From positions 1 to 16,871 of the forward strand of contig DHHG01000274.1 in the NCBI GenBank assembly GCA_002403175.1: a DNA stretch of 16,871 nucleotides, written 5' to 3'. The position numbers and the translations under genes are program-made. The notes beneath the pieces were generated by a model that saw only the letters and a list, made by a program, of their open reading frames with translations, was not told the origin of the DNA and did not search any database. Below, in pieces: positions 3,211 through 15,536 of this stretch. This DNA is from Syntrophaceae bacterium UBA4778 (lineage in GTDB: Bacteria > Desulfobacterota > Syntrophia > Syntrophales > UBA4778). The number at the start of each line of letters is the position of its first letter. Positions within the stretch are counted from its first letter, which is position 1.

Positions 3211-4029
3211 TTATATCACCCTCTCCGCTCCGGTATAAATCTTCATCTCCTCTTTTTGAAAGGACCTGATCTCCATATCAACGGACATCTTGTGACCGGC
3301 ATATCGAACGGAACCAATCAGCGTCAGCCCGCATTTCTCCCCGATTTCCCGTGCCTTATCTGTGACGGCTGTTTTGGTTGCGACTATCGGGATGCCGGCG
3401 CGAACGATTTTCATGACCATTTCAGAGGCCATCCGGCCGGTAGAAACCATGAAGGTACGGCCGCAATCAATCCTGTTCAGGAGGGCATAGCCAATGGCTT
3501 TGTCCAGTGTGTTGTGTCGGCCGATGTCTTCCGTAACACAGCGGAGATTGCATTCTGAATCGAAAAGTGCCGCGGAATGCGCACCTCCCGTTGTTTGGTA
3601 AAGTGATCCTTTTTCAAAGAGAAGACCTATCGCCTTGTATATGTCTTTTCTGGCGATTTTAAAATCGGAATCAATATAAGGCAGGCTGGATGACTCGAAA
3701 TAAGCTGTCCGGCCGCCGCCGGAGACAATGCGGCAACTTGTTTTTGCCTTCCAGCTTGAATTGTAATCCGTTTTTGTCAAGACAGCGCAGGCGCCTTCTT
3801 CGGTGATTTCCAGGGTGGAGATCTCATCGGGGCTTTCGATAAATCCCTGTCCAAAGAGATACCCGATTACGAATTCCTTTTCCATAACGGGTGTTATCGA
3901 GGCTGTCGCCAGGTGCTCGCCATTTATGATAATGGGCAATTCTTTTTCCACAATCAGGGCGGCCTCTGAAGGAACCAATTTTCCTTCTTCGAATTTCCGG
4001 ACTTTAAACAGCTTGGATACTCCCGTCAT
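3211..4029 (-). CDS. fdhD: FdhD-type formate dehydrogenase accessory sulfurtransferase
   Basis: The product has 272 residues, normal length for FdhD. In the known family FdhD passes sulfur from a cysteine desulfurase to the bis-MGD molybdenum cofactor, activating formate dehydrogenase in the cytoplasm. Visible family marks are EKEFVIGYLFGQGFI (50-64), TTGGAHSAALF (146-156), EDIGRHNTLDKAIG (167-180), VSTGRMASEM (195-204) and AGIPIVATKTAVT (211-223). The loop that carries the CxxC pair in E. coli FdhD here holds a single cysteine, C99 (TSCRIVSGGG), which may be the sulfur carrier. The start codon overlaps the stop of the upstream paralog by one base (TAATG), implying translational coupling. No formate dehydrogenase gene lies in the window, so the target enzyme is unknown. 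Confidence 0.92.
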   Translation of the reverse strand: MTGVSKLFKVRKFEEGKLVPSEAALIVEKELPIIINGEHLATASITPVMEKEFVIGYLFGQGFIESPDEISTLEITEEGACAVLTKTDYNSSWKAKTSCRIVSGGGRTAYFESSSLPYIDSDFKIARKDIYKAIGLLFEKGSLYQTTGGAHSAALFDSECNLRCVTEDIGRHNTLDKAIGYALLNRIDCGRTFMVSTGRMASEMVMKIVRAGIPIVATKTAVTDKAREIGEKCGLTLIGSVRYAGHKMSVDMEIRSFQKEEMKIYTGAERVI

Positions 4030-4730
4030 TATTCAATCCTCTCAGGGTGCGAGTACACAATCATGCTGTTCTTCCTTACCAGGCCGACGATTGTAATTCC
4101 CGCCTTTTCCGCCAATTCCACGCCAAGCGAAGTGGGCACACCCTTGGTGGCAATGATCGGGATACCGGCGCTAATGCACTTTAAAATCATTTCAGTGGGC
4201 TGCCGGCCTGTTGACGTGGCCAGCGTTTTGGAAAAATCCACATCCTTCAACAATCCTGCTCCGATTGCCTTATCCAAGGCATTGTGACGGCCAAGATCTT
4301 CAGCGATGGCGACGGCTTCTTTGCCATCCAGAAAGAGACCTGCGGAATGCACGGCTCCGGTCTCCTCAAATATCGGTGATGTCAGGATGGCGCTGACGCA
4401 GTTAATGACGTCTTCGTTTCGAATTTTCAGGTCGGAATGGACCGTCTGCGGAAGGGCACGTTTTTCGATTCCGGGTTTGAGTTTGACACCGGCAATATTA
4501 TTTTCGATCTTGATGGAAAGGATGTCCGAAACACGATGGATGTATCCCTGTATATAAAGATATCCGGTGACATACTCCTTTGCCATGGCGGCAACGATCA
4601 TGGCAGTGGCAACATGCTGATTATCAATCAATATCGTCAGCGCCGTTTCCCGTATGATTCTTTCAGTAACGTGGGTTGATTCACCATTGACCCGGATGCA
4701 CTCTATTTCAGCATATATATTCTCATCCAT
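4029..4730 (-). CDS. FdhD-like paralog lacking the cysteine loop
   Basis: ATG 4730 is chosen as start because TTAGGA lies nine bases before it. An ATG at 4766 would add 12 residues but has a ribosome site only three bases away. From 4730 the protein has 233 residues, shorter than the usual 255-280. It keeps the FdhD core: AKEYVTGYLYIQGYI, EETGAVHSAGLF, EDLGRHNALDKAIGAG, STGRQPTEM and AGIPIIATKGVPTS. Compared with the downstream neighbour, about 20 residues are missing between the LKPGIEKRA region and HSDLKI. That is exactly where the neighbour has TSCRIVSGGG, and no cysteine remains there. It therefore probably cannot transfer sulfur in the standard way. It may act as a partner subunit, a cofactor-binding chaperone, or in another molybdo/tungsto-enzyme maturation step. 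The pair looks like a tandem duplication in one operon. Confidence 0.88.
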   Translation of the reverse strand: MDENIYAEIECIRVNGESTHVTERIIRETALTILIDNQHVATAMIVAAMAKEYVTGYLYIQGYIHRVSDILSIKIENNIAGVKLKPGIEKRALPQTVHSDLKIRNEDVINCVSAILTSPIFEETGAVHSAGLFLDGKEAVAIAEDLGRHNALDKAIGAGLLKDVDFSKTLATSTGRQPTEMILKCISAGIPIIATKGVPTSLGVELAEKAGITIVGLVRKNSMIVYSHPERIE

Positions 4731-4789
4731 AATTAATATTCCTAATCTGCGTAGGCGAGACTGCATTTATCCTATTTTCATGGAAATTG

Positions 4790-7483: not shown

Positions 7484-8023
7484 CTAATTCGTGGCCTTTT
7501 GGGTCTTCAGATCCCAACCTGCTTTTGAACCGGTGGGTTTATACTCTACTTCGATTTTAGAGAAGTTCAGAGTCAGTTCATCTCTTGATCGGGCATCTTT
7601 GCCTTTCTCAAAAAAAGTCTTATAGGACGAAATCATCACATCCGATAGCTTCCAGGTAACCAGATCCTGAATGCCGGATGTATTAACACGCGACAGAGTA
7701 ATCGTGGCATTCCGGATGTGTGTCCCTGAAGCAGCAGTCACGAAGAGTTTGGGGGTTGCTGTGCTTGAGAACATCGTGACCATGACATCCTGCATATTGA
7801 TTTTACCTGCTCCCGCACGGGATCCTGCTGTCACGGAAGCACTCATGCTTTCACTCCAGAAATAGGAGAGCAACTCGATTTCGCCTCTGTGAGGAAGTGT
7901 GGTTGAATCTCCGGAAATGCCGTCCAGCTTCAGGAATGCCGTAACCTGCTCGGCATGAACGCTTCCAGAGTCAATGAGAATGGTAAAGACAGCCAGAAAC
8001 AAAATCAGATGGAATCGCTTCAC
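7484..8023 (-). CDS. Hcp-like (type VI tube family) protein with a Sec signal peptide
   Basis: The start is GTG at 8023, with GGAGG nine bases upstream. The product has 179 residues. Residues 1-24 are a clear signal peptide: basic MKR, a hydrophobic core and SVHA before E25. The mature part matches the Hcp family (ring-forming tube protein of type VI secretion) throughout: FLKLDGISGDST, HRGEIELLSYFWS, AGKINMQDVMVT, PKLFVTAASGTHI, KLSDVMISSYKT, and LNFSKIEVEYKPTGSKAGWD near the end. Canonical T6SS Hcp is assembled in the cytoplasm and has no signal peptide, so this one is probably exported to the periplasm or outside and not part of a sheathed machine. No other T6SS gene lies in the window. 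It follows the LplT-PlsC fusion on the same strand by about 130 bases and may have its own promoter. Its role is unknown; fold assignment is strong, function weak. Confidence 0.87.
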   Translation of the reverse strand: MKRFHLILFLAVFTILIDSGSVHAEQVTAFLKLDGISGDSTTLPHRGEIELLSYFWSESMSASVTAGSRAGAGKINMQDVMVTMFSSTATPKLFVTAASGTHIRNATITLSRVNTSGIQDLVTWKLSDVMISSYKTFFEKGKDARSRDELTLNFSKIEVEYKPTGSKAGWDLKTQKATN

Positions 8024-8152: not shown

Positions 8153-10027
8153 TCATGACTCGTCATGTTTCATGCTGCTTATAGCTTCAAACAGTTTTGC
8201 GGCTGAAAATTTTTCCGGTGGAATTGGGGGGGCGAATTCCAAAGATATCCTGGACCATCTTCTGCGGAAGGGGATGCGTTTGCCTGTATACTTACGGCTG
8301 AATATGCTGCCCCAGAGTCCGTTCAGACATGCAGGCACTACAGGAACGGGATTGTGATCGATAATGGTCTCGATTCCCTCCTGGAATGGCTGAATTTTCC
8401 CGTCTCTCGTGATGCCTCCCTCGGGGAAAATAACGACCACCCCTTTATTATTCAGCTCCTGTTTAATGCGCCTGAATGCGCCGAGCAAGATTGCCCGGTT
8501 TTCGGCTGATTCGGCAATCGGTATTACTTTAATATCTCTGAAGATCCATTTCAGAAAGGGCAGGTTCATGAAGGAGTAATGCATAATGAACCGGGGAGGA
8601 ACGGGACAGGCGCTGGCGATAATCAATGCATCTACGAAGGAAACGTGATTGCAGGCGATTACGTAAGGTCCCCGGAGAGGAAGATGTTCGCGCCCCTTTA
8701 CTTTCAGCCGGTAAACCAGATTGACAATGAACCAGCTCATCATGCGCAGCACAAAATCCGGAATCGCTGAGTATATATAGCATGCAGCAGCCAAATTCAT
8801 CAGAGCGAGGATCAGGAAGATTTGGGGATAACTGAATTCAAATGCATACAGGGCCATCAGAAGCACGGAAGCGGCCACCATGAAGAAAGCATTTAAAATA
8901 TTATTGGCTGCAATGACACGTGAGCGGATGTCCGGATCGGGACGATTCTGGATAAATGTATAGAGGGGCACAGTATACAAACCGCCAAAGACAGCGAGGA
9001 GAAATAGATCCATTGCAATGCGTCTGCCTGAAGGGGCATTTAGAAAGTCAATCGCGCTGATCAACATACCATGTTGTCCAATAACGGGATGGCCGACCAG
9101 GAAGAGATCGAAAGCAAAGATGGACATTCCGAAGGAACCGATGGGAACAAGTCCGAGTTCGATTCTTTTGAAACTGAGCTTCTCACAGAGGATGGAACCT
9201 GCTCCTATCCCGATCGAAAACAGTGCCAGAAAGAGCGTCACTACCGAGGCGCCGGCGTGCAGAAAATCCTTGCAATATACCGGGAAAATGGAAATGAGCG
9301 AAATGCCGATAAACCAGAACCAGGATATAGCCAGAACGGATAAATATACGCTTTTCACACGCCGGGCAATTCCGATCGTCTCCCATGCGGTCGTGACCGG
9401 ATTCAAGCTTATCTTTAATAGCGGCGAGACAGCCTCAATGGGACGTATTGCAAGACTGGTAAGATATCCGGTAACGGCGACGCAAATGGTCATCCATCCG
9501 GCAAGCCAGGGTCCTCTGTCCGGAATGGAGATGATCTCCACCCCGAGGATGGAACCCAAAAGAATTGCAATGAAGGTGCCTGTTTCTACATAGGCGTTAC
9601 CCGTTACCAGTTCATCCTGATGGAGCAGGTGGGGGAGGATACTGTACTTGACCGGTCCGAACAGGGTGGAGTGGACTCCCATCAGAAAAAGACAAATGAG
9701 TAGAAGCAAAATATTGCCCCAAACAAAACCAATCAGGCCAAAAGTCATGATAAAGATTTCGAAGGCCTTGACTACGCGCATAATAACGGGTTTACGGAAT
9801 TTATCTGCAAGCTGTCCTGAAATTCCGGAGAACAGGAAAAAAGGCAGAATAAAAATACCTCCGCACAGGGAAACCATTTGCTCCGGCGAGAGTCCCCCCA
9901 GCGAATATGCTTTATACGCAATCAATATGCCTATGGCATTTTTGAAGACATTATCATTAAATGCCCCGAAGAACTGGGTGAAAAATACGGGCCAGAACCT
10001 TCGGTCCACCATTATGTTTTTGCTCAT
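8153..10027 (-). CDS. LplT-like MFS transporter fused to a PlsC-type acyltransferase
   Basis: ATG 10027 is chosen as start (AGGA nine bases upstream); the frame runs back to a TTG at 10051 without a ribosome site. The protein has 624 residues. Residues 1-420 are a major facilitator domain with lysophospholipid-transporter marks: FFGAFNDNVFKNAIG (19-33), SGISGQLADKFRKP (67-80) and LFGPVKYSILPHLL (122-135). Residues 430-615 are a glycerolipid acyltransferase: NHVSFVD (460-466, catalytic H461/D466) and FPEGGIT (534-540). The same two domains occur in Aas-type fusions, which also carry an acyl-ACP synthetase; that third domain is absent here. Likely role: flip lysophospholipid across the inner membrane and re-acylate it, using acyl-ACP or acyl-CoA made elsewhere. 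It is divergent from the Mla operon, fitting a lipid-homeostasis locus. Confidence 0.9.
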   Translation of the reverse strand: MSKNIMVDRRFWPVFFTQFFGAFNDNVFKNAIGILIAYKAYSLGGLSPEQMVSLCGGIFILPFFLFSGISGQLADKFRKPVIMRVVKAFEIFIMTFGLIGFVWGNILLLLICLFLMGVHSTLFGPVKYSILPHLLHQDELVTGNAYVETGTFIAILLGSILGVEIISIPDRGPWLAGWMTICVAVTGYLTSLAIRPIEAVSPLLKISLNPVTTAWETIGIARRVKSVYLSVLAISWFWFIGISLISIFPVYCKDFLHAGASVVTLFLALFSIGIGAGSILCEKLSFKRIELGLVPIGSFGMSIFAFDLFLVGHPVIGQHGMLISAIDFLNAPSGRRIAMDLFLLAVFGGLYTVPLYTFIQNRPDPDIRSRVIAANNILNAFFMVAASVLLMALYAFEFSYPQIFLILALMNLAAACYIYSAIPDFVLRMMSWFIVNLVYRLKVKGREHLPLRGPYVIACNHVSFVDALIIASACPVPPRFIMHYSFMNLPFLKWIFRDIKVIPIAESAENRAILLGAFRRIKQELNNKGVVVIFPEGGITRDGKIQPFQEGIETIIDHNPVPVVPACLNGLWGSIFSRKYTGKRIPFRRRWSRISLEFAPPIPPEKFSAAKLFEAISSMKHDES

Positions 10028-10062
10028 CGGTACCCATCCTGAATGGTTCAAAAAATTATCTT

Positions 10063-10092: not shown

Positions 10093-10282
10093 TAAGAATA
10101 TTCCTGAAATCAGTATTACTGAAGCGACCTTTGAGAGCATGAAATTTCAGATTTATGCTTAGGACATAGCTAAGTCCCAGGATAGAAGGAAATCAGGGAA
10201 ATCCGGATTGTTCCCCTCCGGTAATTATTGCTATCACAAATATAAGTAAGTTCTATTGCTGAAAATTTTATGGAGAACATAC

Positions 10283-11122
10283 ATGCCGACCGCAACCGAT
10301 GATCAATCCGCAGCGGAGGTGAAGGGCTGGCCTGGTATTTTCCTATCTCCTTTCCGTCTGACAGGTCAGATTGTCGTCGGATGGGTCAATGATCTCGGCG
10401 CCGTTTTCATTTTCCTCGCATTGGCAGCTTTCAAGGCATTTCGCCCGAGGCAGATTTCCAAAGTCATATATCAGATTTTTTATATCGGTGCACGATCGAC
10501 CACGATCATCATGCTGGTTGGACTCTTCACCGGCATGGTTCTTGGCCTCCAATCTTATTATGCACTGGTTAAATTTGGCGCCCAGGGTGCCTTGGGAACG
10601 CTGGTTTCGTTATCGCTGATCAGGGAGCTTGGTCCTGTTCTGACGGCCATCATGATTACTGCAAGAGCGGGCTCTGCCATGACGGCGCAAATCGGAATTC
10701 AGCGAATCTCCGATCAGATAAGCGCCCTTGATACCATGCGGGTTGATTCAATCAGGTACCTGATCAGTCCGCGAATAACTGCTTCCATTATCAGTTTCCC
10801 AATCCTGACAGCCGTTTTCGACATGATCGGAATCGTGGGAGGCTATATCTCCGGGGTTCTTCTGCTTGGGGCGAACTCTGCCACCTATATCCAACGCGTT
10901 CAGTCCAGTGTGGATTTTCAGGATATCCGGGATGGATTTATCAAGTCGTTAGTCTTCTCAGTTCTTGTTACGACTATCTGCAGCTTTGAAGGATATTTCG
11001 CCCATATGCGCTCCGACAGTCACGGAGCAGAAGCTGTCGGTCTTTCGACAACTTCCGCAGTCGTGATCTCCTGTGTGATGGTGCTGATATCGGATTATGT
11101 AGTGACCTCCTTGCTCATCTAG
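10283..11122 (+). CDS. mlaE: MlaE-family phospholipid ABC transporter permease
   Basis: ATG 10283 is chosen (GGAG seven bases upstream) over a TTG at 10256. The product has 279 residues, usual for MlaE, with a polar N-terminus, an amphipathic segment and about five hydrophobic helices. Family marks are GLFTGMVLGLQ (80-90), LIRELGPVLTAIMITARAGSA (112-132) and the coupling region QIGIQRISDQISALDTM (136-152), where relatives often have E in place of the Q. It forms the inner-membrane channel dimer that works with MlaF and an MCE protein (MlaD) to move phospholipid between the inner and outer membranes. It is the first gene of the operon. The next gene starts 209 bases on, after an inverted-repeat element. 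Confidence 0.93.
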   Translation: MPTATDDQSAAEVKGWPGIFLSPFRLTGQIVVGWVNDLGAVFIFLALAAFKAFRPRQISKVIYQIFYIGARSTTIIMLVGLFTGMVLGLQSYYALVKFGAQGALGTLVSLSLIRELGPVLTAIMITARAGSAMTAQIGIQRISDQISALDTMRVDSIRYLISPRITASIISFPILTAVFDMIGIVGGYISGVLLLGANSATYIQRVQSSVDFQDIRDGFIKSLVFSVLVTTICSFEGYFAHMRSDSHGAEAVGLSTTSAVVISCVMVLISDYVVTSLLI

Positions 11123-11123
11123 T

Positions 11124-11227
11124 CAGGCTGTTGAAAAAGGCTCATATACTGCGGTGCGCTTCGGCTCTCCCCGAAAGGCCCCGGGACAAGCGCTTCTCCT
11201 TATCTCTGAGCCTTTTTGAACAGCCTG
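11124..11227. repeat. 104-bp element with 21-bp terminal inverted repeats (MITE/REP-like)
   Basis: The left end (11124-11144) starts CAGGCTGTTGAAAAAGG and the right end (11207-11227) is its inverse, with 20 of 21 positions matching. The middle is GC-rich and holds another short inverted pair (GCGCTT / AAGCGC). No target-site duplication is evident, and no transposase is encoded. It begins 2 bases after the mlaE stop and lies inside the operon, so its RNA would form a long hairpin that could weaken expression of mlaF onward or protect the mlaE message. Whether it is mobile depends on finding other copies in the genome. Confidence 0.7.
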
Positions 11228-11331: not shown

Positions 11332-12579
11332 ATGCAAACGCCTCTGATTGAATTCCGGAATGTAAGTAAGCGCTTCGGTTCATTGGTTGTACTGGATCGT
11401 GTCAATCTGAAGATCTATGAGGGAGAGGTCACGACCATTATCGGTCTGAGCGGTGCCGGAAAAAGTGTTTTGCTCAGGCACATTATCGGACTGCTCAAAC
11501 CGGATGAAGGAGAAATCTATTTCCGAGGCAAAGCCCTGTCAGGAATGAAACAAAGAGAACTGGATCAGAGCTTTGCAACCATGAGTTACATGTTTCAGGG
11601 GAATGCACTTTTTGATTCGATGAGTGTTTTTGAAAACGTTGCTTTACCACTTAAGGAAACGACAGATCTCAAGAAAAGCGAAATTGAGCAAAGGGTGATG
11701 ATGAGAATTGATCAGATGGAACTCGGAGAGGCCGCCAACAGCTTCCCTTCGGAATTATCCGGCGGTATGCAAAAGAGAGTTGCTCTGGCAAGGGCACTGG
11801 TCACCAATCCGCAGATTGTTCTTTTTGATGAGCCGACGTCCGGTCAGGATCCGGTCCGAAAAAATGCTATCCTCAGCATGATTGCCGAATACCAACATAA
11901 ATTTAATTTCACGGCTGTTCTGGTAAGCCACGCCATCCCTGATGTCTATTTTATTTCCAACCGCATTCTGGCAATTTTTGAACGCAGCATTGTTTTTCAG
12001 GGCACGCCGGAGGAATTTGAAAATTTCGATCACCCGTTCAAGAATGAGGTCCTCCATAGCCTGGAAGAGCTTCAGCGGGAACTGACCGGCCTCTACTCGC
12101 GCCGCCAGTTTAAGATTCAGTACCGGCTTGAATTGTCCCGTCCTTCGTTCCAGGAAAAATATGTCATGATCGTTTTCACGATTGATAATCTGGAAGGTTT
12201 GATTTCAGGGTCGGGTCATGAAGCTGCCCAGGAAACCATACACAGGCTGGGGGTCTTAATCGATAAGCACTTTGGCGCTGTTGGCGGCTTTTCAACCCGC
12301 CGTGGCTTCAATGAATTCGTAACGGTTCTACCCTATTCGAACATTGAGGAATCAGAGGGAATCCTCAGTAAGCTCATCGAAGATTTCCAGGCTCAGGGAA
12401 TGAGTGCTCAATCCTTCCAAAAATATGGAGACAGACAGGTCTGCATAGAATTTGGTATTTCAGCGGGAATGGCTCAGGGACTGCCGATTGCGGATATGGA
12501 GGTTATCATTGCGAGCGCCGAAAAGGGTCGGCGGGAAATTGCGCGATTCATGTGCGCTCCCGAAGGAGCAGCCGAATGA
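11332..12579 (+). CDS. mlaF: MlaF-family ABC ATPase with a C-terminal degenerate GGDEF-like domain
   Basis: The protein has 415 residues, whereas MlaF is usually near 250-270. Residues 5-240 are a complete ABC ATPase: Walker A GLSGAGKS (38-45), Q-loop Q89, signature LSGGM (142-146), Walker B IVLFDEP (162-168) and switch H200. It would drive the MlaE permease from the cytoplasm. After a helical link, residues about 276-405 follow a GGDEF diguanylate-cyclase pattern: VFTIDNLEGL with a conserved Asp (D285), GHEAAQETIHRL (295-306), STRRGFNEFVTVLPY (321-335), EFGISAG (373-379) and a final SAEKGRREIAR like the ADxALYxAKxxGRN end. GGDEF is replaced by GFNEF (325-329), so catalysis is unlikely; a nucleotide-sensing or protein-contact role is inferred. 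The start has only a weak ribosome site. The stop overlaps mlaD by four bases. No MlaB-type STAS gene is present. Confidence 0.92.
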   Translation: MQTPLIEFRNVSKRFGSLVVLDRVNLKIYEGEVTTIIGLSGAGKSVLLRHIIGLLKPDEGEIYFRGKALSGMKQRELDQSFATMSYMFQGNALFDSMSVFENVALPLKETTDLKKSEIEQRVMMRIDQMELGEAANSFPSELSGGMQKRVALARALVTNPQIVLFDEPTSGQDPVRKNAILSMIAEYQHKFNFTAVLVSHAIPDVYFISNRILAIFERSIVFQGTPEEFENFDHPFKNEVLHSLEELQRELTGLYSRRQFKIQYRLELSRPSFQEKYVMIVFTIDNLEGLISGSGHEAAQETIHRLGVLIDKHFGAVGGFSTRRGFNEFVTVLPYSNIEESEGILSKLIEDFQAQGMSAQSFQKYGDRQVCIEFGISAGMAQGLPIADMEVIIASAEKGRREIARFMCAPEGAAE

Positions 12580-13055
12580 AAAAATTTTCAATGGAAACAA
12601 CCGTGGGCATCTTTGTCGTGATTGGGCTGATCCTGATCGGTTACATGACTGTGAAGCTTGGAGATGTCTCCATTTTAAGCGACAGGACCTATCCGCTGTA
12701 CGCGAAATTCTCTGATGTTACAGGTTTGAAGTCCGGCAGCCCTGTCGATATGTTCGGAATCGAAATAGGCAAAGTCGAGCAATTGACCATGGATCCCAAA
12801 TCGGTTCAGCCCATGGTGAAATTGAAAATACGAAACAACGTCCAAATTTATGATGATGCGATTGCCTCCATTAAAACGGAAGGCCTCCTTGGGGATAGTT
12901 ATATCAGCGTCGATCCCGGTGGCGGAGGAGATCTTCTCGGTCCAGGCGGAATGATAACGGATACGCATCCACCTGTAGATATCATAGATCTGATCAGTAA
13001 GTACGCGTTCGGCGATATCAGTAAGAAAAAGAATGAAAAAAAACCTCAGGAGTAA
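12576..13055 (+). CDS. mlaD: MlaD-family MCE-domain protein
   Basis: ATG 12576 overlaps the mlaF stop as ATGA and has AAGGAG seven bases upstream. The product has 159 residues. One membrane anchor (about 9-25) is followed by a single MCE domain (about 38-116): SDVTGLKSGSPVDMFGIEIG, VEQLTM, and ASIKTEGLLGDSYISVDPG. The short charged tail ends KKKNEKKPQE. In the Mla system MlaD hexamers sit on the periplasmic face of MlaE and form the pore through which lipid passes to or from MlaC. Length is close to that of E. coli MlaD. mlaC begins four bases after its stop. Confidence 0.94.
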   Translation: MKKFSMETTVGIFVVIGLILIGYMTVKLGDVSILSDRTYPLYAKFSDVTGLKSGSPVDMFGIEIGKVEQLTMDPKSVQPMVKLKIRNNVQIYDDAIASIKTEGLLGDSYISVDPGGGGDLLGPGGMITDTHPPVDIIDLISKYAFGDISKKKNEKKPQE

Positions 13056-13059
13056 AAAA

Positions 13060-13644
13060 ATGAAAAGATTTGTACTGATCCTGATCCTTTCAATCCTCTT
13101 TTTTTCCGTATCGCCGTTATTTGCTGCCGATACGCCAGATGAATCTGTGAAGGCCAATGTTGATCAGGTGCTCGCTGTATTGAGGAATAAATCACTGGGA
13201 AGAGAAGCCAAAACTGAGAGACTGGAATCGATTTATAAAAAAATGTTCAATGAAGTCGAACTTTCAAAAAGAAGCATGGGAAGACATTGGAAGCAATTGA
13301 ACCCCTCTCAGCAAAAAGAATTTGTGGATATATTCCGCCGGATACTCGAAAAAGCTTACATAGATAAGATTCTCGCCTATAAGGATGAAAAGGTAGAGTT
13401 CGATAAATCGTCCATGATCGCCCAAAACAGGGCGGAAGTTCCGACCACAGTTGTTTCTTCATCTCGCCGGACACCCATCACCTACAGATTGATCAAGCAG
13501 GAGAATGACTGGAGGGTTTACGATGTCGTTATCGAAAATGTGAGTCTGGTTCAGAATTACAGAAGTCAGTTCAACGAGTTGATGACAAAGAACTCGCCGG
13601 AACAACTGATCGAAATTCTGCGAAAGAAGGTCAAACAGAAATAG
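13060..13644 (+). CDS. mlaC: MlaC-family periplasmic phospholipid-binding protein
   Basis: ATG 13060 is chosen: AGGAG lies seven bases upstream, and the product then opens with a proper signal peptide (MKRFVLILILSILFF, cleavage probably after LFA at residue 22). An upstream in-frame ATG at 13033 would put extra charged residues before it. The mature protein of about 172 residues shows the MlaC/Ttg2 pattern: TERLESIYKKMFNEVELSKR, HWKQLNPSQQKEFVDIFRRI, then beta-strands around VEVPTT-like EVPTTVVSSSRRTPITYRL and WRVYDVVIENVSLVQNYRSQF. It would shuttle phospholipid between MlaD and the outer-membrane MlaA complex. The tight spacing after mlaD supports one transcript. Confidence 0.94.
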   Translation: MKRFVLILILSILFFSVSPLFAADTPDESVKANVDQVLAVLRNKSLGREAKTERLESIYKKMFNEVELSKRSMGRHWKQLNPSQQKEFVDIFRRILEKAYIDKILAYKDEKVEFDKSSMIAQNRAEVPTTVVSSSRRTPITYRLIKQENDWRVYDVVIENVSLVQNYRSQFNELMTKNSPEQLIEILRKKVKQK

Positions 13645-13684
13645 ATTCAGTTATAATCCTATTATGTTTAAACAGGAGCTTGCT

Positions 13685-14683
13685 ATGTACAAGATCTCCA
13701 GGGCCATGTTGTTATTGGTCATGATTTTTATCGGATGTGCTCATGTTAACTCGTCCCAGAACTTTTCAAATTCAAAAGATTCGGTAACAGAATCAGCCGG
13801 TGTGAAAGAATTTGTTTCCCCCCCGATCCGCTTGACATCCGACGCATCCCCTCCATTTCGATCCGAATCGAAATTGATTTTCCGGAAGGATCTGTGCTCG
13901 CATGCAAATGAAGGAGCTGTCTTCTTCTGTGTGGAACCGCAATTGATCGGGGTTGCAGTTTCAAAAGATCAGGAAATAGAAACCAAAAATGATACTGATA
14001 ACGAAACAGATATGGAAGAGGAAGAAGAGGTAAAAATAGCCGATCCCATAGAACCCTTCAATCGCGCGATGTTCGTATTCAATGATCGCCTTTATTTCTG
14101 GGTCTTGAAACCCGTAGCTCAAAAATACAGTGACATCGTTCCTGAACGGGCGCGCACAGGGATTGACAGATTCTTTGAGAATCTCAAATTTCCCATTCGT
14201 TTTGTTAATAACCTGCTTCAAGCGAACCTGAGCGGCGCTTTTTCCGAGCTGGGGCGTTTTACCGTCAATACAATCTGGGGCATCGGAGGATTTCTCGATC
14301 CTGCTTCGAAGGAAGGACTGGAGCTTCGCCGATCCGATGCTGATTTTGGACAGACCCTTGGCATCTACGGGTTGGGACAGGGAATCTATATCATATGGCC
14401 GGTACTCGGTCCTTCCAGCGCCCGGGATTCGGTGGGACTGGTCGGCGACTATTTCCTGTATCCGGTCTCCTATATTTCACCAATTTATGCTGGCCTTGGA
14501 GTGAGGGGATACAGCACGGTGAACAATACCTCGCTACGGATCGGCGATTATGAGTCGCTCAAGGAAGCGGCCATCGATCCTTATGTCTCTTTGAAGAACG
14601 CTTATGCCCAGTATCGGGAAAAGAAAATAAGCATGAGAGCTTCGAAAAATGGTCCGCCGAAACCGGGTGGAGTATATGACTGA
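13685..14683 (+). CDS. mlaA: MlaA (VacJ)-family outer-membrane lipoprotein with a long acidic linker
   Basis: ATG 13685 is chosen (AGGAG six bases upstream) over an ATG at 13664. The product has 332 residues. A lipoprotein signal ends in FIGC with C18 as the lipidated residue. Residues 19-118 form an unusual linker with little order and an acidic stretch (TDNETDMEEEEEVKIAD). The MlaA domain follows: ADPIEPFNRAMFVFNDRLY (119-137), KFPIRFVNNLLQANLSGAFSE, GRFTVNTIWGIGGFLDPAS, DFGQTLGIYGLGQGIYIIWP, and LGPSSARDSVGLVGDYF. In known systems MlaA, often with a porin, removes phospholipid from the outer leaflet. MlaA relatives usually have a much shorter N-terminal link. The end of the gene overlaps the next one by eight bases. 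Confidence 0.93.
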   Translation: MYKISRAMLLLVMIFIGCAHVNSSQNFSNSKDSVTESAGVKEFVSPPIRLTSDASPPFRSESKLIFRKDLCSHANEGAVFFCVEPQLIGVAVSKDQEIETKNDTDNETDMEEEEEVKIADPIEPFNRAMFVFNDRLYFWVLKPVAQKYSDIVPERARTGIDRFFENLKFPIRFVNNLLQANLSGAFSELGRFTVNTIWGIGGFLDPASKEGLELRRSDADFGQTLGIYGLGQGIYIIWPVLGPSSARDSVGLVGDYFLYPVSYISPIYAGLGVRGYSTVNNTSLRIGDYESLKEAAIDPYVSLKNAYAQYREKKISMRASKNGPPKPGGVYD

Positions 14684-15536
14684 AAGCGAATCAGCCGCCA
14701 GGAATCATGAGAATATGCAGCTCATGGACACAATCTCTGGGAAAGGGGGAATCACTACGAAAAAGATAATAGTCGCTTGTTTATCGATCTTCATTGCTCT
14801 TTGGTTCACGATTTCAGCAGAAGCAGCAGGTCTCTTTGGCCCGCCGGAGCCTATCGGTAAAAAAGAGGGGGGCTTACGTACTGGTATCGGATACCAGAAT
14901 TATCAGGATCGTTTTAAGAACGGTTCGGATTACATCTTTAAGCAGCGTGTGATCTATTCGGAGGCATCGTATGTCGCCCGTAGTCTGTGGGAAATATTCG
15001 GCCGAATTGGAATTGCGGATCTGAAGATTATAGATGCCTTTCCAAATTCGTCTGTTTTATCCATGTCCAAAAATGATTTTGAGGATAACTGGTCCTTTTT
15101 TGGGACACTGGGAGGCAAACTGTTTCACCCTGCAGGCGACAATTACGGGATAGGTATTTTCTTCCAGGCTTCTCATGCACTGAGTGATTACAACGATTCC
15201 GTTTCAGGCATTTTCAATGGGATACCTATTCTTTCTGAAATTAAAATAAAAAATCTCTGGGATGCTTCGATGGGTATAGGTTTTCAGGCAATGATATTCT
15301 CCAATACAAAATTGTACGGCGGACCTTATGTCTCCCATGCAGAGGCCGAGGTATCCCCTTCTCCATCGATCGGCTCAGCCGGTTTGACCTCAGGGGATAA
15401 TACGATCCAGAATAAGACAAAGGTCGGCGGATTTGTCGGAGTCGCTTTCCCACTGTACAAGATGTTCAATCTGAATATCGAGGCACAATGTACGGAGAGA
15501 GTGTCTATCGGTGCGGCAGTCACCTTTTCTTATTAA
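14676..15536 (+). CDS. Outer-membrane beta-barrel protein of the mla operon, unknown function
   Basis: The likely start is ATG 14676, overlapping the mlaA stop by eight bases, with GGAG close upstream. This gives 286 residues. A signal peptide (KKIIVACLSIFIALWFTISA, then EAAG) begins about 28 residues in, leaving an oddly long N-terminal region; an alternative start nearer the signal is possible but no ATG or GTG fits well. GGGGGA lies just before an ACG codon at the signal's start. The mature part has alternating polar/apolar strands rich in Gly, Tyr and Phe (GGLRTGIGYQNYQDRF, SFFGTLGGKLFH, NYGIGIFFQAS, LWDASMGIGFQAMIFS) and ends in VSIGAAVTFSY with a terminal aromatic residue, as outer-membrane barrels do. 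No family is recognised. Its place at the end of the operon suggests a partner of MlaA, taking the role that porins play in E. coli. This is inferred from position. Confidence 0.75.
   Translation: MTESESAARNHENMQLMDTISGKGGITTKKIIVACLSIFIALWFTISAEAAGLFGPPEPIGKKEGGLRTGIGYQNYQDRFKNGSDYIFKQRVIYSEASYVARSLWEIFGRIGIADLKIIDAFPNSSVLSMSKNDFEDNWSFFGTLGGKLFHPAGDNYGIGIFFQASHALSDYNDSVSGIFNGIPILSEIKIKNLWDASMGIGFQAMIFSNTKLYGGPYVSHAEAEVSPSPSIGSAGLTSGDNTIQNKTKVGGFVGVAFPLYKMFNLNIEAQCTERVSIGAAVTFSY

What the first reader, a model, noticed from the sequence alone, without database searches (positions are those of the whole stretch)
12157..12546. MlaF ATPase fused to a degenerate GGDEF-like domain
The ABC ATPase of the Mla system ends near residue 250, but this one has about 165 more. 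The extra part lines up in order with GGDEF hallmarks: a beta-strand ending in DN (D285), GHxAAxE, RRGFNEFVTVLP where active enzymes have R.GGDEF...LP, EFGISAG like SxGvA, and a closing SAEKGRREIAR. Two of five signature residues are changed (GFNEF), so it is probably non-catalytic. It could bind GTP or c-di-GMP, or act as a dimer contact. This would couple second-messenger state to lipid transport at the outer membrane. No MlaB (STAS) gene, the usual regulatory partner, is seen in this operon, so the extra domain may replace it.
Basis: partly seen in the sequence, partly recalled or inferred. Interest (0 to 1): 0.75.

Follow-up and report, generated by a model that had tools for sequence, protein, structure and literature searches.

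The report
Lipid pump with dead GGDEF domain
The motor protein of a bacterial outer-membrane lipid transporter carries, at its tail, a relic of a signalling-enzyme domain that has lost its active site but has been kept across a group of anaerobic bacteria, probably to hold or regulate the motor.

Summary
Window 11332-12579 encodes an MlaF-type ABC ATPase of 415 residues. Residues 251-379 match Pfam GGDEF above its cut-off (E 3.1e-8). A profile of the tail from 36 relatives matches 51 PDB sequences, mostly named GGDEF or diguanylate cyclase (best E 2.6e-21). An AlphaFold model fits the GGDEF order of strands and helices. At least 50 of 395 sampled genomes of the phylum carry the fusion, nearly always in an mlaE-F-D-C operon. 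At E <= 1e-90 it appeared in 0 of 299 and 0 of 132 genomes of two other phyla. An ATPase tree needs only two label changes, so one origin is likely.

The domain is not a cyclase: none of 217 relatives has an intact signature or the metal-binding Asp. The RxxD (c-di-GMP inhibitory-site) motif is absent here but present in 34 of 217, all in the branch with Desulfococcus/Desulfonema. 'It replaces MlaB' is not supported: unfused operons of the phylum lack MlaB too. Best reading: a dead GGDEF fold used as a C-terminal dimerisation or regulatory domain. Five searches listed no paper describing it.

The parts
10256..11122 (+). mlaE, permease
   Evidence: TIGR00056 E 3.8e-66, above cut-off
11124..11227 (.). 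104-base palindrome between mlaE and mlaF (21-base arms, 62-base loop)
   Evidence: the repeat finder 95% complementary; folds at z -5.0
11332..12579 (+). mlaF-GGDEF fusion gene, 415 aa
   Evidence: ORF; PF00005 and PF00990
11332..12036 (+). ABC ATPase part, residues 1-235; Walker A GLSGAGKS at 38, signature SGGMQKR at 143, Walker B IVLFDEP at 162, His200
   Evidence: MlaF chains are the top PDB fold matches
12082..12549 (+). degenerate GGDEF-like domain, residues 251-406
   Evidence: PF00990 251-379 E 3.1e-8; profile against PDB E 2.6e-21; model
12178..12180 (+). Thr283 in place of the metal-binding Asp of the DxD motif
   Evidence: alignment; Asp in 0 of 217 relatives, Glu in 1
12298..12318 (+). 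RRGFNEF, position of the R-x-GGDEF signature; Arg323 is invariant in 217 of 217
12576..13055 (+). mlaD; its ATG overlaps the mlaF stop (ATGA)
   Evidence: TIGR04430 MlaD E 7e-42, above cut-off, scanned from residue 2; overlap read from the ORF coordinates and frames
13033..13644 (+). mlaC-like (HpnM/MlaC)
   Evidence: HpnM E 2.1e-26 and MlaC E 2.7e-10, both under their cut-offs
13664..14683 (+). mlaA-like lipoprotein gene
   Evidence: PRK15091 MlaA E 1.3e-37, under its cut-off
14649..15536 (+). unnamed protein found downstream of mlaA in relatives of the window; an outer-membrane barrel is a guess
   Evidence: seen in 13 of 51 loci with a fused MlaF (fetched stretches may end before it); no Pfam or NCBIfam match

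Best explanation
Shown: MlaF here is an ABC ATPase fused to a C-terminal domain of GGDEF ancestry that has lost its catalytic residues, and the same fusion is found in mla operons across a large clade of Thermodesulfobacteriota. Likely, not proven: the fusion arose once. Inferred: the domain works as a C-terminal dimerisation and regulatory module of the transporter's motor. A pair of these domains would bring the two ATPase subunits together and set how readily they dock on MlaE. That is the job proposed for the short C-terminal 'handshake', with MlaB, in E. coli MlaF, and for the C-terminal domain in MetN. In the window's protein any control would come through protein contacts or an unknown ligand, not through the canonical GTP or c-di-GMP sites.
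For: Homology: (33 of 36 tails match PF00990 at E <= 0.001). Spread and intact frames: 51 full-length fused ORFs in 50 of 395 genomes. Operon: mlaE directly upstream in 49 of 51 loci, mlaD downstream in 50, mlaC nearby in 48. ATPase tree: 52 fused and 45 unfused rows need 2 changes, shuffled mean 32. Lost active site: signature intact in 0 of 217, Asp283 in 0 of 217, second Gly in 0 of 217, while Arg323 is invariant, which looks like a maintained but re-purposed fold. Model with mean pLDDT 86.7 and a helix 235-252 leading from the ATPase into the domain. Role by analogy: PMC7367683 passages report that artificial dimerisation of truncated E. coli MlaF restores function to a large degree, and compare this with MetNI's dimeric regulatory domains.
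Against: No dimer was modelled and no experiment exists. GGDEF-like tails diverge faster than the ATPase (mean pairwise identity 30% against 63%), which fits a loosely constrained spacer as well as an interface. Two unfused close relatives (L132, L133) show the operon can exist without the domain. At least one fused member scores under the Pfam cut-off (L161, 20.6 bits) and 3 of 36 tails miss E 0.001. Fold searches with the whole model were filled by ABC domains, so the GGDEF fold was not tested by structure search on its own.
Confidence: 0.5

Rival explanations
1. The tail is a c-di-GMP receptor: c-di-GMP binds the inhibitory site (RxxD) of the dead GGDEF domain and switches the lipid transporter.
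For: RxxD at the canonical spacing (RxxD, five residues, then the signature position) in 34 of 217 relatives: all 28 used proteins, the search from the Desulfococcus-type member, and 6 of the 10 loci of that branch. 49 of 50 fused genomes hold a strong GGDEF match (best E 3.2e-42 or lower), so c-di-GMP is probably made there. Dead GGDEF domains that bind c-di-GMP by RxxD are known (BcsE, PelD; recalled).
Against: The window has AVGG where RxxD should be, and no relative outside that branch has the motif. Asp at that place with Arg before it is also common in ordinary GGDEF domains (recalled), so it may be an inherited remnant; the proteins are also close kin of one query. G381 keeps the fusion with only one GGDEF match at E <= 1e-10 (8.5e-15), though its completeness is unknown.
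Confidence: 0.2
2. The tail is an adaptor for another protein, for example a cyclase, phosphodiesterase or envelope factor, with no ligand of its own.
For: GGDEF domains often act through GGDEF-GGDEF contacts (recalled); residues unlike those of enzymes are conserved in the window's branch (KHFG, GG, S and R at 312-323).
Against: No dedicated partner gene stood out among the small ORFs scanned near the operons (39 ORFs, 25 of 45 families shown); larger neighbours were not surveyed.
Confidence: 0.2
3. The tail replaces MlaB.
For: No STAS gene beside a fused MlaF among the listed matches (a cut list) or with a home-made profile.
Against: Unfused operons of the phylum also lack it: 0 of 40 have a PF13466 match within 5 kb of the primary MlaF. 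MlaB is sparse among diderms (PMC10665443).
Confidence: 0.05
4. The tail is a decaying leftover without function.
For: Fast divergence; one truncated case, L137.
Against: The 51 fused ORFs from the genomes run 383-467 aa without a stop in the match; a residue invariant in 217 of 217; retained although tails share only about 21-57% identity with the window's.
Confidence: 0.05

Closest known systems
E. coli MlaF/MlaFEDB (6xgy, 6xbd)
   Same: ATPase fold and motifs, operon partners MlaE, D, C, A; top structural matches
   Different: E. coli MlaF ends in a ~25-residue extension and pairs with MlaB; here a ~155-residue GGDEF-like domain and no adjacent MlaB seen
GGDEF diguanylate cyclases (PleD, WspR, 6zxb)
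   Same: Sequence homology and predicted order of strands and helices
   Different: Signature, metal and guanine residues lost
Degenerate GGDEF receptors (FimX, LapD, BcsE, PelD; roles recalled)
   Same: Dead GGDEF kept as a regulatory module; FimX and a 'cyclic dimeric GMP binding protein' are among the PDB matches
   Different: Not fused to ABC ATPases (recalled); the window lacks RxxD
MetN and other ABC ATPases with C-terminal regulatory domains
   Same: Order: ATPase, then a regulatory domain; a MetN chain aligns over 321 residues, though at 6.9 A rmsd
   Different: MetN's domain is an unrelated methionine-binding fold (recalled)
Chains named ammonium transporter (8qj3, 8qj4, 8qpf)
   Same: A transporter protein with a stretch that matches the tail profile (E 8.1e-13)
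   Different: Not an ABC motor; what the domain does there was not read

Membership tests
GGDEF domain (PF00990), as homology | Profile match above the curated cut-off | tested here: met
   34.0 bits against 23.8; 33 of 36 relatives at E <= 0.001
GGDEF domain (PF00990), as homology | GGDEF fold by structure search of the domain alone | tested here: inconclusive
   Strand and helix order fits, but searches were filled by the ABC part
Active diguanylate cyclase | GG[DE]EF signature | tested here: not met
   GFNEF in the window; pattern [GSA]G[DE][EF]F in 0 of 217 relatives
Active diguanylate cyclase | Metal-binding Asp of DxD | tested here: not met
   Thr283; Asp in 0 of 217, Glu in 1
c-di-GMP receptor through the GGDEF inhibitory site | RxxD five residues before the signature | tested here: not met
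   AVGG in the window; present in 34 of 217 relatives, all in another branch
c-di-GMP receptor through the GGDEF inhibitory site | Binding of c-di-GMP | not testable with these tools
   Needs purified protein
MlaF | ABC ATPase closest to MlaF, with Walker A, B and SGGM signature | tested here: met
   PRK11831 MlaF is the best NCBIfam match but under its strict cut-off (203.4 of 441 bits); motifs; MlaF chains lead fold matches
MlaF | Encoded with mlaE and mlaD | tested here: met
E. coli-type MlaFEDB | MlaB (STAS) partner in the operon | tested here: inconclusive
   No ORF in the operon stretch reads as MlaB, but the window's ORFs were not each scanned for STAS except through the home-made profile, and the window's genome is not held

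The most novel reading that the evidence does not exclude
Lipid traffic between the membranes is under second-messenger control in several lineages by domain capture on MlaF. Desulfococcus/Desulfonema MlaF would sense c-di-GMP by the RxxD site kept in a dead GGDEF tail, and a separate class of Pseudomonadota would do so by an N-terminal MshEN-like domain on MlaF (extension aligned in 35 of 48 genomes). The window's branch would have kept the GGDEF scaffold but moved to another signal.
Probability: 0.15. Interest if true: 0.8.

Novelty: new variant of a known kind. Interest (0 to 1): 0.58.

Why it matters
How the Mla transporter is regulated is open: how active MlaB is controlled in E. coli is called an open question (PMC7367683 passages). 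Here a regulator-like part is covalently attached, conserved and separable, so its role can be tested by deleting it. Some related proteins also bear the source name 'diguanylate cyclase' (Desulfonema ishimotonii, and Thermodesulfobacteriota and Thermodesulfatator MAGs), which would mislead counts of c-di-GMP enzymes.

Tried and rejected
The first AlphaFold model, from 36 close sequences, was poor (pLDDT 61); a more diverse 69-row alignment gave the usable one. Foldseek and VIA searches with the full-length models showed ABC chains only in the rows listed, so they neither confirm nor deny the GGDEF fold. The genome-contig scan found one fused locus (L001) among the 80 kept, probably because its patterns need exact peptides; the profile search was used instead. 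A home-made STAS profile (13 ORFs, not validated) found nothing and is weak evidence; the PF13466 genome searches are better, but the list stops near E 2e-6. Among the matches listed there, those on the contig of a fused MlaF lay 19 kb or more away (G037:C59, G207:C5, G381:C14, and the single-contig genome G162). PF01740 (STAS) was searched only in G001, with no match. Long MlaF ORFs in the control set (such as 483 and 505 aa) carry N-terminal extra sequence that reads as frame run-on, and no C-terminal domain. Rfam found nothing in the window. tblastn of the tail against plasmids found nothing. Pfam does not recognise MshEN on L266/L267; only the PDB sequence search does.

Rows dropped: of 59 genomes matched, 50 carry a full fusion, 1 is truncated (G330), 5 are unfused (G187, G214, G233, G278, G392), and 3 (G098, G225, G356) gave partial matches (two of them at a contig start) that were not fetched. 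Of 191 proteins listed passed length >= 375 and the profile, and were used with 52 locus proteins, the window included. One search found 868 proteins but listed only 120. Of 30 MshEN-type loci, the script aligned 18.

Full report
What is there. The ORF 11332-12579 (+) encodes 415 residues. Residues 21-170 are an ABC ATPase and residues 251-379 match PF00990 GGDEF at E 3.1e-8, above the curated cut-off. Walker A, signature and Walker B motifs are present. The gene sits in mlaE-mlaF-mlaD-mlaC-mlaA order. The mlaD ATG overlaps the mlaF stop (read).

Is the tail really GGDEF? A single-sequence search of PDB chains is led by GGDEF proteins (1.1e-4 at best). A profile of 36 tails (A4) finds 51 PDB sequences at E <= 0.001, best 2.6e-21, PleD at 7.5e-16; most are named GGDEF or diguanylate cyclase, others 'uncharacterized', 'response regulator', 'motility regulator', FimX or 'ammonium transporter'. 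33 of the 36 tails match PF00990 at E <= 0.001, and no other family is matched. Eight distant members scanned whole all pass the cut-off; L161 does not (20.6 bits). The second model (69 sequences, mean pLDDT 86.7, pTM 0.79) has strand 277-285, helix 287-315, strands 320-323 and 328-334, helix 338-355, strand 374-383, helix 389-398, strand 401-406; residues 351-370 are poorly predicted. The signature position falls between the two strands 320-323 and 328-334, as in GGDEF domains (recalled). Structure searches with the whole model were filled by ABC domains and do not bear on the tail.

How widespread. The tail search found 868 proteins, of which 120 were listed, most of them about 414 aa with ABC and GGDEF domains, three of them named Syntrophales. 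Searches from two distant members found 33 and 38 proteins, among them Desulfococcus, Desulfonema and Thermodesulfobacteriota, with a few ordinary GGDEF proteins at the weak end. In 395 genomes of the phylum of L001 (Syntrophaceae; Thermodesulfobacteriota by the NCBI lineage), drawn from a larger group, 59 matched the full-length profile at E <= 1e-90. After reading the loci, 50 have a full-length fusion, one of them (G136) with two copies on one contig. Among 54 other genomes of the same sample, 42 have an MlaF-like match at E <= 1e-65, and each of the 44 listed matches ends at or before profile position 263. At E <= 1e-90 no fused match was seen in 299 genomes of the phylum of L051 (Marinobacterium; Pseudomonadota, recalled) or in 132 of the phylum of L003 (a Zixiibacteriota MAG): the 2 and 3 matches end at position 243-245. 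More diverged fusions there could have been missed.

Origin. A quick tree of the ATPase part (52 fused, 45 unfused) needs two label changes, against 32 in shuffled sets. All 52 fused rows lie in one group with two unfused rows, L132 and L133; support is modest (SH-aLRT 82, or 73 for the group with L132 only). One gain, with perhaps one or two losses, is the simplest reading, not a proven one.

Active site. In 217 relatives (59 at under 75% identity) the pattern [GSA]G[DE][EF]F occurs in none, the metal Asp in none (Glu in one), the second signature Gly in none, while Arg323 is invariant. Window residues at the guanine positions are Ile291 and Gln300. I conclude no cyclase activity and no canonical GTP binding. 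The residue roles are recalled from PleD.

Inhibitory site. RxxD at canonical spacing is present in 34 of 217: 28 of 28 used proteins and 6 loci, all in the branch with Desulfococcus and Desulfonema, where 34 of 38 rows have it. 45 of 217 keep the Asp. The window has AVGG. So c-di-GMP sensing is open for that branch and unlikely by this route here. 49 of 50 fused genomes have a strong GGDEF match (best E 3.2e-42 or lower); G381 has one at 8.5e-15 only.

MlaB. In 40 unfused control loci, none has a PF13466 match within 5 kb of the primary MlaF (coordinates; 10 of the 40 contigs end inside 5 kb); STAS lies near second MlaF copies in G021 and G059. In fused genomes no listed match is near MlaF, but that list is cut. 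Absence of an adjacent MlaB is therefore general in this sample and cannot be credited to the tail. PMC10665443 (passages) says MlaC, MlaA and MlaB are sparsely distributed, and models a Veillonella MlaEFD with a shorter C-terminal extension but no MlaB.

Mechanism. PMC7367683 (passages) shows that E. coli MlaF has a C-terminal extension that wraps around the other subunit and contacts MlaB, says that artificial dimerisation restores truncated MlaF to a large degree, and compares this with the dimeric regulatory domains of MetNI. GGDEF domains also act as pairs (recalled). The fused tail starts about where the handshake would start (near residue 246). A dimerisation or regulatory role is thus the best-supported inference; ligand and partner are unknown.

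Literature. Searches for MlaF with GGDEF, degenerate GGDEF with ABC ATP-binding proteins (20 of 59 papers listed), MlaB with Deltaproteobacteria, mammalian cell entry with GGDEF and a five-term search listed no paper that, by title and start of abstract, describes such a fusion. Only listings were seen for these. Most papers of subscription journals are not held.

Noticed in passing
Support is PDB sequence matches only: PilF 2.5e-6 summed over several weak stretches (best single one not significant), PilB 6.5e-4, MshE 0.0024. Pfam finds nothing, and the guanine-stacking Arg is mostly missing in 18 aligned loci (motif from PMC5013675 abstract and passages). No paper holds both MshEN and MlaF.
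   Followed up: partly
window 11124-11227: A 104-base palindrome with 21-base arms between mlaE and mlaF, folding far better than shuffles (z -5.0); 46 of 49 loci have a gap of 35 bases or less there, the window 213. No other copy in the window and no exact 15-base core in 300 loci. It looks like a mobile or regulatory hairpin.
   Followed up: partly
window 14649-15536: A protein without any Pfam or NCBIfam match sits last in the mla operon in 13 of 51 loci. It could be the porin partner of MlaA in this branch; that is a guess.
   Followed up: partly
L125 (G136): Two fused MlaF genes on one contig, one scoring 734 bits with the window-branch profile, the other 397, in the range of the Desulfococcus-type members; this suggests transfer or an old duplication.
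   Followed up: no
L137 (G330): MlaF of 286 aa whose tail stops early in the GGDEF region: a loss in progress or an assembly error.
   Followed up: no
window 3211-4766 (-): Two fdhD (formate dehydrogenase sulfurtransferase) genes in tandem.
   Followed up: no
window 7484-8023 (-): An Hcp-family protein (PF05638 E 3.8e-28) with what reads like a signal peptide; no other type VI secretion gene was recognised among the window proteins scanned.
   Followed up: no
window 8153-10051 (-): A transporter-acyltransferase fusion that matches only the first half of acyl-ACP phospholipid acyltransferase models, so it seems to lack the ligase part; another lipid-remodelling gene, upstream of mla on the other strand.
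   Followed up: no
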